Source of the DNA: Chloroflexota bacterium
GTDB taxonomy: Bacteria > Chloroflexota > Anaerolineae > Anaerolineales > Anaerolineaceae
DNA: 64,000 nt
Direction: 5' to 3'
Assembly (NCBI GenBank): GCA_009773005.1
Contig: WOUT01000008.1
Location: forward strand, 1 to 64,000
Shown here: positions 20,715-24,199 of the stretch, piece after piece
Position numbering within the stretch: the first letter of the stretch is position 1
Layout: every line of letters begins with the position of its first letter
Program-made: the position numbers and the translations under genes
Notes under the pieces: generated by a model
Seen by the model: only the letters and a program-made list of their open reading frames with translations
Databases searched by the model: none
What the model was told of the DNA's origin: nothing

Positions 20715-21581
20715 ATGGATAACAAGCCGATTCTAGGTGTCATTGGTGGTTCAGGTTTATATGATTTTCCGGCTTTGACTGACATTGAAACAATCTTCCC
20801 GGAAACGCCTTTTGGAAAACCCAGCGCACCAATTACGATTGGTTCGCTCGTCGGAAAGAGGGTTGCGTTTTTGGCCCGCCATGGCGTCGGGCATACACTT
20901 ACTCCCACGGAAGTAAATTATCGCGCCAATATATATGCGTTAAAATCTTTAGGCATTGACCGGATTGTGAGTATTAGCGCTTGTGGATCGTTGCGAGAAG
21001 ATTTTGCACCAGGTCATATTGTGATTCCCTCTCAATTATTTGATTTCACACATCAACGCAAACGGTCTTTTTTTGAAAATGGGATGGTTGTACATGTAGG
21101 TGCAGCAGATCCTTTTTGCCAAAACCTGTCGAATTCTCTTTATCAAATAGTAACTTCCACTGGCGCTACTGCTCATATGGGGGGTTCCCTAATAACCATC
21201 GAAGGACCAAGATTTTCAACAAAAGCAGAGTCCAACACCTACCGGACGTGGGGAATGGCGATCATCGGAATGACCACTTCTCCAGAAGCGTTTTTAGCTA
21301 GGGAAGCAGAAATGTGCTACGCAGTAATGGCGCATGTGACTGATTATGATGTGTGGCACCAAAGCGAAGCTGCTGTTAGTGTCGATATGGTAATCAAAAC
21401 ACTTCAAAAGAATACTGAAATTGCTCAAAAATCGATCCTCGAACTCGTCTCACAATTTTGTGAGCCAGAACCATGCGCTTGTTACCACGCTTTGGAAAAT
21501 GCGATCATTACAAAACTTGAGTCCATTTCTGACGAAACCAAGAAGAAACTAAGCCTATTGGTGAAAAAATATTTGCCTTGA
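20715..21581 (+). CDS. S-methyl-5'-thioadenosine phosphorylase family protein
   Basis: GVIGGSGLYDFPAL, FLARHGVGHTLTPTEVNYRANIYALK, TIEGPRFSTKAES. Confidence 0.92.
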   Translation: MDNKPILGVIGGSGLYDFPALTDIETIFPETPFGKPSAPITIGSLVGKRVAFLARHGVGHTLTPTEVNYRANIYALKSLGIDRIVSISACGSLREDFAPGHIVIPSQLFDFTHQRKRSFFENGMVVHVGAADPFCQNLSNSLYQIVTSTGATAHMGGSLITIEGPRFSTKAESNTYRTWGMAIIGMTTSPEAFLAREAEMCYAVMAHVTDYDVWHQSEAAVSVDMVIKTLQKNTEIAQKSILELVSQFCEPEPCACYHALENAIITKLESISDETKKKLSLLVKKYLP

Positions 21582-24199
21582 GCTTTCCCTTTTCATCCAC
21601 TCGCTCTCCAAAAGAATTGATCCAAAGCCGCCTTATGAATCTGGCAGCAGTATTTCTGTTCGTTGGATGCGTAATCCTCACATTTGCACCCGCAGTTAGA
21701 TTTCACACCTGGCAGGTGGAATATCGTTGGCAGCAATGGGTTGGTTTTGTTGTTTGGCTATTCGGGTTCTCATTCGTTTACCGCCAAGCCAACCGTTTTC
21801 TTCCAGACCGGGACCCTTATTTACTCCCCATCATTAGTCTAATGGTCGGGTGGGGGCTGCTGACAATTTTTCGTCTTGATCCGGTTTTTGGTTACAGACA
21901 AACCATATGGCTTTCAATTTGTTTAGCAGGTTTTATTATCGGTTTACGCATACCAGGTTTATTGTCGATTTTACGACGTTATAAATACATCTGGCTAACA
22001 CTCGGATTATTGCTAACCCTGTTTACCTTTTTCTACGGCACATATCCTGGTGGAAAAGGACCGAATCTCTGGCTGGGATGTTGTGGAATCTACCTGCAGC
22101 CCTCAGAATTTTTGAAATTCTTGTTGATCATTTACCTGGCTGCTTACCTGGCTGACAGTCTTCCATCAAAATTTCGCCTGATTCGACTGCTGACTCCCAC
22201 TCTTTTAGTCGCCGGCTCAGCCCTTTTGATCCTGATTGCACAACGTGATCTGGGTACTGCTTTCCTTTTTATTGCTCTCTACGCAGTTGTGATCTATCTG
22301 GCGTCAGGCAAGCGAAGAGTCTTGTTATTCAGTTTTATAACGGTTCTTTGCGCTCTGATTGCAGGTTATCTAATTTTTGATGTCATTCAATTGAGGATTG
22401 AAGCCTGGTTAAATCCTTGGCTAGATCCTAATGGACGCTCTTTTCAAATTGTTCAATCCATCATCTCCGTAGCCAACGGAGGTATTTTTGGAAGAGGGAT
22501 CGGACTTGGCAGTCCAGGGGTCATTCCAATAGCGCACTCTGATTTCATCTTCCCTTCCATCGTTGAAGAAACAGGTCTTTTTGGTGCAGTTGCGCTAGTC
22601 ATTTTATATGCATTTTTCACAATTCGCGGATTTTCTGTCTCACTTCACGCACCTAATCAGTTTCAACGATTTCTGGCAGCCGGCATTACAGCATTTATCA
22701 TCACTCAATCCATTCTTATTATGGGTGGAACAATTCGTTTATTACCGCTCACTGGGGTTACCCTTCCCTTTATCTCATATGGTGGATCTTCGCTCGTTAC
22801 CTCATTCTTTTCTGCCATGCTATTAATGATCATAAGCAATCAAGCGGAAGATCAGCCAGCAGTTATTTACCAATCCAAACCATATCTGTTTATTGGCACT
22901 GTATTCCTCGCAGGTCTTGTCACAATCGTTGTGCTAACCACCTGGTGGATTGTTGTCCGTGCAGATGGCTTATTAGCAAGAAATGATAATCCGCGTCGGT
23001 TTATTTCTGATCAATACGTCCAGCGCGGTAAGATTCTGGACCGCAACAATAAAATTCTTGCTGAGACGCTTGGCGAACCCGGCAACTACACCCGGGTCCT
23101 CCATTATCCTCCTTTGAGTGCGGTGGTAGGGTACTCAAACTCAAATTACGGTCAAGGTGGTTTGGAAGCCAGCATGGATGCGGTTCTCCGCGGTGTTCAA
23201 GGTAATTCTTTGTTTACCATCTTTTCGACTCGCCTTTTAGCCGCACAGTACCCAGTTGGATTGGATATACGGTTAAGTCTAGATCTGCAACTACAGCAAA
23301 TTGCAGATTCACTAATGCAGACAAAAAAAGGTGGATTGGTCTTGTTGAATGCCGAAACCGGTGAAGTGCTCGTTATGTCCACTGCTCCGTCTTTTGACTC
23401 GAATTCTCTACAAACAAATTGGGAGACCTGGAAAGCATCTGATGACTCACCATTGTTAAATCGCGTTACACAAGGGCAGTACCCACCGGGAGCAGCCACA
23501 GGTGGGTTGGTTCTCGCACAAATGCTGGCGCGGGCAACCTTGCCAGTTTCGATTCCATCCGCGAACTGGTCAGTCAGTCAAAATGAGTCTGATTATTGCG
23601 CTGTATTTCCTGGCGCCAATCCGACTTGGGAAAAACTGATCTCTTCAGGGTGTACCGCTGCATTGACTATGATTAATAAATCCATTCAACCCACTGAGAT
23701 GTTTAGTTTCTATCAACAAATCGGGTTCTTTGATCAACCGGATATTCCAGTGGAGAGTGTGGAACTAGTTACTCAAAAGTTTGTGGAAACCTATAATAGT
23801 CTTTTTACTGGCGGATCTGATCTATTAGTCTCTCCGTTACAGGTGGCAGTGGCAGCCGCTTCCCTTTCAAATGGCGGAATGATCGTATCTCCACAAATTG
23901 CAACCGCATATTTATCGCCAAATGATGTATGGTTGTTGTTTCCTGCAAAAAACGCTCCGCTTCAATTGACCGCCACCAACTCAGACGCTGCGGCAGCGTT
24001 GCTGAGTAGTGGAACATTTCCGGGTTGGGAGATTCTGGCAGTCGCTAAAACAGAGTCCGGAAAGGTGGATTGGTATGTAGCAGGGACGCCTCCTGAATGG
24101 CAAGGTACCCCATTAACAATTGTTGTGGCACTCGAAAATTCAACGCCAAGAGCAGCTCAAAATATCGGTAGACAAGTATTTAATGCCGCGATTAATTAA
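21578..24199 (+). CDS. SEDS (FtsW/RodA) glycosyltransferase fused to a penicillin-binding-protein-like domain
   Basis: SEDS motifs QRDLGTAFLF, HSDFIFPSIVEETGLFG, LPLTGVTLPFISYGGSSL; then PBP-like RGKILDRNNKILAET, LLNAETGEVLVMSTAPSFD, LLNRVTQGQYPPG. Confidence 0.93.
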   Translation: MSFPFSSTRSPKELIQSRLMNLAAVFLFVGCVILTFAPAVRFHTWQVEYRWQQWVGFVVWLFGFSFVYRQANRFLPDRDPYLLPIISLMVGWGLLTIFRLDPVFGYRQTIWLSICLAGFIIGLRIPGLLSILRRYKYIWLTLGLLLTLFTFFYGTYPGGKGPNLWLGCCGIYLQPSEFLKFLLIIYLAAYLADSLPSKFRLIRLLTPTLLVAGSALLILIAQRDLGTAFLFIALYAVVIYLASGKRRVLLFSFITVLCALIAGYLIFDVIQLRIEAWLNPWLDPNGRSFQIVQSIISVANGGIFGRGIGLGSPGVIPIAHSDFIFPSIVEETGLFGAVALVILYAFFTIRGFSVSLHAPNQFQRFLAAGITAFIITQSILIMGGTIRLLPLTGVTLPFISYGGSSLVTSFFSAMLLMIISNQAEDQPAVIYQSKPYLFIGTVFLAGLVTIVVLTTWWIVVRADGLLARNDNPRRFISDQYVQRGKILDRNNKILAETLGEPGNYTRVLHYPPLSAVVGYSNSNYGQGGLEASMDAVLRGVQGNSLFTIFSTRLLAAQYPVGLDIRLSLDLQLQQIADSLMQTKKGGLVLLNAETGEVLVMSTAPSFDSNSLQTNWETWKASDDSPLLNRVTQGQYPPGAATGGLVLAQMLARATLPVSIPSANWSVSQNESDYCAVFPGANPTWEKLISSGCTAALTMINKSIQPTEMFSFYQQIGFFDQPDIPVESVELVTQKFVETYNSLFTGGSDLLVSPLQVAVAAASLSNGGMIVSPQIATAYLSPNDVWLLFPAKNAPLQLTATNSDAAAALLSSGTFPGWEILAVAKTESGKVDWYVAGTPPEWQGTPLTIVVALENSTPRAAQNIGRQVFNAAIN

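What the first reader, a model, noticed from the sequence alone, without database searches (positions are those of the whole stretch)
21578..24199. SEDS polymerase fused to an apparently dead penicillin-binding-protein domain
The 873-aa ORF joins a full FtsW/RodA-type SEDS domain to a class B PBP-like domain. The SEDS half keeps its key motifs, including the Asp of HSDFIF (around 22541) and LPFISYGGSSL. In the PBP half the expected PPGSTFK active site reads YPPGAATGG (23492..23503), so both catalytic Ser and Lys are missing. The SxN region reads SSGCTAA where SCNTAF is typical, and the KTG region reads AKTESG (24047..24055). Losing all three motifs while the reading frame stays open suggests a pseudo-transpeptidase kept as a structural activator of the SEDS polymerase. 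SEDS enzymes are known to be activated by their cognate bPBP, so a covalent non-catalytic partner would be a distinctive arrangement.
Basis: partly seen in the sequence, partly recalled or inferred. Interest (0 to 1): 0.82.

Follow-up and report, generated by a model that had tools for sequence, protein, structure and literature searches.

The report
Cell-wall polymerase with dead crosslinking partner
A bacterium of the class Anaerolineae makes a cell-wall-building enzyme permanently joined to a penicillin-binding domain that has lost the residues needed to crosslink the wall, and most of its relatives have kept this broken-looking half, probably because it now only switches the enzyme on.

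Summary
Window 21578-24199 encodes an 873-aa SEDS polymerase fused to a PbpA-type class B PBP. The aligned active site reads AATG for SxxK, GCT for SxN, and has no KTG. It is not one decayed allele: in 121 close relatives the fusion and the SEDS Asp are always kept, none has Lys at the SxxK position, and SxN survives in one. A SEDS tree (87 rows) puts 38 dead pairs, Anaerolineae where the taxon is known, in one branch (SH-aLRT 97), plus one independent dead case. Most other Chloroflexota carry the same FHA-operon pair as separate genes with intact motifs. dN/dS of the dead domain is about 0.11 in the one unsaturated pair. The pedestal is at least as conserved as in intact pairs, while the transpeptidase lobe drifts; one family deleted its SxN-bearing part. 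The genome has complete FtsW/FtsI and MreBCD/PBP2/RodA systems, so this is a third module. Most likely the dead half is a built-in structural activator (inferred, untested). Natural SEDS-PBP fusions were known; a clade-wide catalytically dead one was not found in the open-access library. New variant of a known kind.

The parts
19462..20265 (+). FhaA-like protein: FhaA_N plus C-terminal FHA domain (267 aa)
   Evidence: Pfam FHA 66.7 bits, FhaA_N 24.9 bits just under its cut-off of 25; first gene of the conserved cluster
20267..20698 (+). FhaB-like protein: N-terminal hydrophobic segment plus FHA domain (143 aa)
   Evidence: Pfam FHA 74.2 bits; conserved in order
20703..21581 (+). PNP/MTA phosphorylase-family enzyme, conserved passenger of the cluster
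   Evidence: PF01048 152 bits; directly before the SEDS gene in most Anaerolineae loci seen
21578..24199 (+). SEDS - pseudo-class-B-PBP fusion protein, 873 aa (TTG start, overlaps the upstream stop)
   Evidence: AlphaFold2 mean pLDDT 86.4
21881..22846 (+). SEDS glycosyltransferase domain (residues 102-423)
   Evidence: PF01098 E 5.7e-71; aligns to RodA/FtsW structures
22541..22543 (+). SEDS catalytic Asp (D322, HSDFIF)
   Evidence: aligned to D of RodA HTDFVF in a solved structure; Asp in 121/121 proteins and in all 87 SEDS rows
22877..22957 (+). linking transmembrane helix of the PBP half (residues 434-460)
   Evidence: AlphaFold2 helix 434-460
23024..23251 (+). pedestal: PbpA-type dimerisation domain (residues 483-558)
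   Evidence: PF21922 32.7 bits; at least as conserved as in intact pairs at equal SEDS identity
23330..24196 (+). degenerate transpeptidase domain (residues 585-873)
   Evidence: PF00905 residues 585-777; closest solved fold M. tuberculosis PbpA, E 2.3e-18
23492..23503 (+). SxxK position, reads A639-A-T-G642
   Evidence: Lys at 642 in 0/121 proteins
23597..23599 (+). Cys674, invariant in 121 close relatives, possible partner of Cys692
   Evidence: a Cys nearby in 41 of 73 intact rows too, so probably inherited
23648..23656 (+). SxN position, reads G691-C692-T693 (Cys of SCN kept, Ser and Asn lost)
24047..24055 (+). region where KTG is expected, reads K824-T-E
   Evidence: not conserved in relatives

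Best explanation
The protein is a third, FHA-operon SEDS peptidoglycan polymerase (RodA type) covalently joined to its former partner PbpA, whose transpeptidase lost catalysis in an ancestor within the Anaerolineae. Shown by sequence: SEDS active site intact; PBP active site gone; loss old and inherited; domain still under purifying selection; pedestal conserved. Inferred: the PBP half now works only as a structural activator. Its transmembrane helix and pedestal hold the extracellular loop of the SEDS domain in the active conformation. Crosslinking of the new glycan strands is done in trans by other PBPs that the genome encodes intact. The FhaA/FhaB-type proteins and Ser/Thr kinases elsewhere in the genome probably gate the module from the cytoplasm, as proposed for mycobacteria.
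For: Motif loss in all close relatives with the SEDS Asp kept in 121/121. Single branch of 38 dead pairs, SH-aLRT 97, with dead-but-separate members inside it. Region rates: at SEDS identity 0.4-0.5, dead pairs keep pedestal 0.38 and TP 0.28, intact pairs 0.33 and 0.38; in the truncated subgroup at SEDS 0.65, pedestal 0.72 and TP 0.49, against 0.55 and 0.60 in intact pairs. dN/dS in TP 0.11 at dS 0.40 for L027/L028. One family deleted the SxN-bearing part but kept the pedestal. Own genome has three intact class B PBPs and class A PBPs for crosslinking. Literature: pedestal-ECL4 contact activates SEDS, and FtsI homologues can be essential where their TP activity is not (PMC8078798); pedestal changes activate RodA-PBP2 fusions in vitro (PMC6207328). 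FhaA and FhaB share the mycobacterial operon with rodA, pbpA, pknA and pknB (PMC11898655); kinases and PP2C are present in this genome.
Against: No biochemical data on any member. One locus (L046) keeps the SEDS domain and TM segment with no pedestal or TP left, and another (L166) has SEDS with no PBP beside it, so the pedestal is not strictly needed everywhere. Two same-family genomes, one of them a single contig, lack the fusion (G176; G349), so the module is dispensable. The polymer made is assumed, not shown, to be peptidoglycan. The SEDS-pedestal contact was not examined residue by residue in the model.
Confidence: 0.62

Rival explanations
1. The dead transpeptidase lobe is no mere leftover on the pedestal but a repurposed binding domain: it senses peptidoglycan or a partner protein and passes that signal to the SEDS half.
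For: Trp785, 817, 832 and 841 are invariant in 121 close relatives; positions 785, 817 and 841 are mostly not Trp in intact PBPs but are Trp in 53-86% of the dead and truncated rows. TP dN/dS stays far below 1.
Against: The lobe evolves faster than in intact PBPs, and a whole family lost part of it. The conserved Trp residues may only stabilise the core.
Confidence: 0.2
2. The PBP half is a degrading relic without function; the SEDS half works alone and the tail is being eroded.
For: Faster drift of the TP lobe, repeated truncation, and near-complete loss of the PBP half in L046 and L166.
Against: dN/dS about 0.11 in TP and in TM+pedestal for the unsaturated pair; open frames across the class; invariant residues spread over the pedestal.
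Confidence: 0.12
3. The domain still catalyses an acyl transfer with another nucleophile, for example Cys692 or Cys674.
For: Both Cys are invariant in the 121 close relatives.
Against: No invariant Ser, Thr, Lys, His or Asp in the TP part; Cys at the SCN position and a nearby second Cys are common in intact relatives, which suggests an inherited structural pair; both are absent from the truncated family, which keeps the fusion.
Confidence: 0.03
4. The motif loss is an assembly or sequencing artefact, or one decayed allele.
For: The source is a draft assembly in 105 contigs.
Against: The same loss in 120 further database proteins and in genomes of many families.
Confidence: 0.01

Closest known systems
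Mycobacterial RodA-PbpA pair of the operon with fhaA, fhaB, pstP, rodA, pbpA, pknA and pknB
   Same: FhaA- and FhaB-type genes near a RodA-type SEDS and a PbpA-type PBP with PBP_dimer_2 pedestal; best structural match of the model is M. tuberculosis PbpA
   Different: There the two are separate and PbpA is catalytic; here they are fused and the PBP is dead, with a phosphorylase gene in the cluster and no kinase or phosphatase beside it
Coriobacterial SEDS-PBP fusions (L048, L049; PDB 4jbf/4ra7 Atopobium and 4mnr Eggerthella are PBPs of that class)
   Same: Same order of domains in one chain
   Different: Motifs intact (PGSTFK, SAN, GKTGT) and beta-lactam complexes solved; they fall elsewhere in the SEDS tree, so an independent fusion. 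That the PDB chains come from fused genes is inferred from their name and host class, not checked
FtsI homologues essential without TP activity (B. subtilis PBP2B; S. aureus PBP1 was so reported, but PMC9426605 finds its activity essential too)
   Same: A class B PBP needed for SEDS activation apart from its own catalysis
   Different: Those proteins keep their active sites; the dead forms are laboratory mutants, here the loss is fixed in nature
Engineered RodA-PBP2 and SpoVE-SpoVD fusions (PMC6207328, PMC10449877)
   Same: A single-chain SEDS-bPBP works in vivo and, for RodA-PBP2, as a polymerase in vitro
   Different: Synthetic, with an intact transpeptidase

Membership tests
SEDS (FtsW/RodA/SpoVE) glycosyltransferases | PF01098 over the domain | tested here: met
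   240 bits, cut-off 26.4, profile positions 35-354 of 356
SEDS (FtsW/RodA/SpoVE) glycosyltransferases | catalytic Asp in the extracellular loop 4 region | tested here: met
   D322 aligned to structures, 121/121
SEDS (FtsW/RodA/SpoVE) glycosyltransferases | lipid II polymerisation | not testable with these tools
   needs biochemistry
Class B PBP (PbpA subtype) | pedestal plus transpeptidase fold | tested here: met
   PF21922 and PF00905; fold match to PbpA, E 2.3e-18, TM-score 0.72-0.77 by target length
Class B PBP (PbpA subtype) | SxxK, SxN and KTG catalytic motifs | tested here: not met
Class B PBP (PbpA subtype) | penicillin acylation | not testable with these tools
   expected absent without the Ser
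FHA-RodA-PbpA operon | FhaA- and FhaB-type genes upstream of a RodA-PbpA pair | tested here: met
FHA-RodA-PbpA operon | SEDS groups with FHA-operon RodA, apart from the genome's own FtsW and RodA | tested here: met
   tree rooted on own FtsW and RodA, split supported at 97; those two outgroup branches are long, so this is moderate evidence
FHA-RodA-PbpA operon | PstP and PknA/PknB in the cluster | tested here: not met
   kinase and PP2C matches in this genome lie on other contigs
Natural SEDS-PBP fusion proteins | both domains in one open frame | tested here: met

The most novel reading that the evidence does not exclude
Anaerolineae have run a natural separation-of-function experiment: a class B PBP has lost catalysis and been kept as a non-catalytic allosteric subunit of a SEDS polymerase. 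Its transpeptidase lobe is being whittled away in steps (KTG kept in one lineage, the SxN part deleted in others). This yields a glycan polymerase that beta-lactams could not reach through its own partner, with crosslinking handed to another PBP, possibly the MecA_N-type orphan found in all nine dead carriers of a 41-genome class sample but in 15 of 32 others.
Probability: 0.4. Interest if true: 0.75.

Novelty: new variant of a known kind. Interest (0 to 1): 0.6.

Why it matters
Whether the partner PBP of a SEDS enzyme is chiefly an activator or chiefly a crosslinker has been argued from laboratory mutants. Here a large natural clade has fixed the non-catalytic state, so the residues it still conserves should mark the activation interface free of catalytic constraint. 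It also offers single-chain polymerases without a penicillin site, convenient for assays of SEDS inhibitors, and shows that a fused SEDS-PBP annotation cannot be taken as a bifunctional synthase.

Tried and rejected
Alternative catalytic set elsewhere in the domain: none conserved. One relative with an S..K string near the site (P0097) and two with KTG strings (P0016, P0020) are off-register or isolated. The Cys pair as a new nucleophile: shared with intact relatives and absent from truncated ones. Ten paper searches found natural fusions mentioned (PMC10449877; its reference 18 is a Rhodococcus genome paper) but no dead natural PBP partner; the library is open access only, so absence there is weak. 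dS is high for most pairs; only L027/L028 is safely below saturation. Crosslinking in trans by the orphan bPBP: association in the class sample, Fisher one-sided p 0.004, but confounded by ancestry.

Full report
What is there. The ORF at 21578-24199 encodes 873 aa from a TTG that overlaps the stop of the upstream gene. It holds a SEDS domain (PF01098, residues 102-423), a transmembrane helix (434-460 in the model), a PbpA-type pedestal (PF21922, 483-558) and a transpeptidase fold whose Pfam match stops at residue 777. The AlphaFold2 model (58-row alignment) has mean pLDDT 86.4 and pTM 0.77. Its best match among solved structures is M. tuberculosis PbpA, E 2.3e-18.

The motifs. Alignments to PbpA-type crystal structures place PPGAATGG on PGSSFK or PGSTFK. 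In a 132-row alignment of PBP halves the window reads PGAATG, GCT and no KTG, whereas intact rows read PGSTFK, SCN and GKTGT. In the SEDS half D322 aligns with the catalytic Asp of RodA.

Family-wide, not an allele. A protein search listed 120 relatives at 53-100% identity over nearly the full length, one of them the window's own protein in a shorter form. Counting the window, 121 of 121 keep the SEDS Asp, 0 of 121 have Lys at the SxxK position and 1 keeps SxN. No Ser, Thr, Lys, His or Asp is invariant in the transpeptidase part.

Distribution and history. In 301 Chloroflexota genomes the profile finds about 31 with both halves in one frame, nearly all Anaerolineae (my count from open-frame length and loci). 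Loci were fetched and PBP states read by alignment. Most Chloroflexota outside the clade have separate, adjacent SEDS and PbpA genes with intact motifs, often behind FhaA, FhaB and the phosphorylase gene. In Anaerolineae the pair is usually dead and fused; in three loci it is dead but still separate (L047, L051, L148). The SEDS tree (87 rows, quick search, SH-aLRT only) places 38 dead pairs in one branch with support 97; the dead state needs two changes on the tree, the second being G011 (L036), which is also fused. Fusion needs six changes. Because dead-but-separate pairs sit inside the dead branch, death before fusion is possible, but refission cannot be excluded. Fused-but-intact cases are L146 (another Chloroflexota class) and the Coriobacteriia L048 and L049. 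G128 (L167), of the same class as the window, is separate and intact, so the loss is not universal in the class. Some class members lack the module, including two of the same family (G176; G349).

Is the dead half maintained? In the unsaturated pair L027/L028, dN/dS is 0.07 in SEDS, 0.11 in TM+pedestal and 0.11 in TP; other pairs have dS near or above 1 and are only indicative. At equal SEDS identity, dead pairs show a pedestal at least as conserved as intact pairs, and a TP lobe clearly less so. Family f2 and, apparently separately, family f4 have lost the stretch that carries SxN while keeping the pedestal and C-terminal strands. An intermediate with SxxK lost but GKTGT present exists in G305 (L227). 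At the far end, L046 keeps only the TM segment of the PBP half, and L166 has SEDS with no PBP next to it.

Role in the cell. The genome also encodes FtsI and FtsW in a division cluster, and MreB, MreC, MreD, PBP2, Min proteins and RodA in another (gene names by position and sequence character; the PBP and SEDS calls by Pfam), with intact PBP motifs, plus a MecA_N-type class B PBP alone and class A PBPs. The fusion is thus a third SEDS module and not the cell's only route to elongation or division. The cluster FhaA-FhaB-phosphorylase-fusion is conserved and recalls the mycobacterial operon with rodA, pbpA and kinases (PMC11898655). Kinases and PP2C phosphatases exist elsewhere in the genome.

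Mechanism. Published work has the pedestal of a class B PBP activating its SEDS partner through extracellular loop 4, and uses this to explain why FtsI homologues can be essential without their transpeptidase activity (PMC8078798; PMC6207328). For S. aureus PBP1 a later study found the activity essential too (PMC9426605). The pattern here, with catalysis lost, pedestal kept and polymerase site kept, fits that role. This step is inference; no assay was possible. Crosslinking would be done by other PBPs. The orphan MecA_N-type PBP is in 9 of 9 dead carriers and 15 of 32 other genomes of a class sample (p 0.004, not corrected for ancestry).

Novelty. Natural SEDS-PBP fusions are acknowledged in print (PMC10449877). 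A natural, catalytically dead class B partner fixed across a clade was not found in the ten searches made. It works like a SEDS-bPBP complex; as a PBP it fails the defining catalytic feature.

Noticed in passing
L048, L049: Coriobacteriia fuse RodA to an intact PbpA in one ORF, apparently independent of the Chloroflexota fusions.
   Followed up: partly
L146:7653-10460 (G141): A Chloroflexota fusion with fully intact SxxK, SxN and KTG behind an FhaA gene.
   Followed up: partly
L046:6001-7470; L166: SEDS genes of the same cluster that have lost the PBP half almost or wholly.
   Followed up: partly
L227 (G305): Separate dead PBP lacking SxxK but still carrying GKTGT, a possible intermediate of decay.
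   Followed up: partly
window:20703-21581: A PNP/MTA phosphorylase gene sits directly before the SEDS gene in most Anaerolineae loci seen, with a 4-base overlap here; why it is linked to wall synthesis is unclear.
   Followed up: no
L122:4931-7114 (G000 contig 45): Orphan MecA_N-type class B PBP with intact motifs and no SEDS gene beside it, common in the class.
   Followed up: partly
L124:4237-7116 (G000 contig 62): Second class A PBP, 959 aa, with a weak transpeptidase match (38 bits) and a Big_7/BiPBP_C tail.
   Followed up: no
G176; G349: Two genomes of the same family, G176 in a single contig, lack the fusion, so the module can be lost.
   Followed up: no
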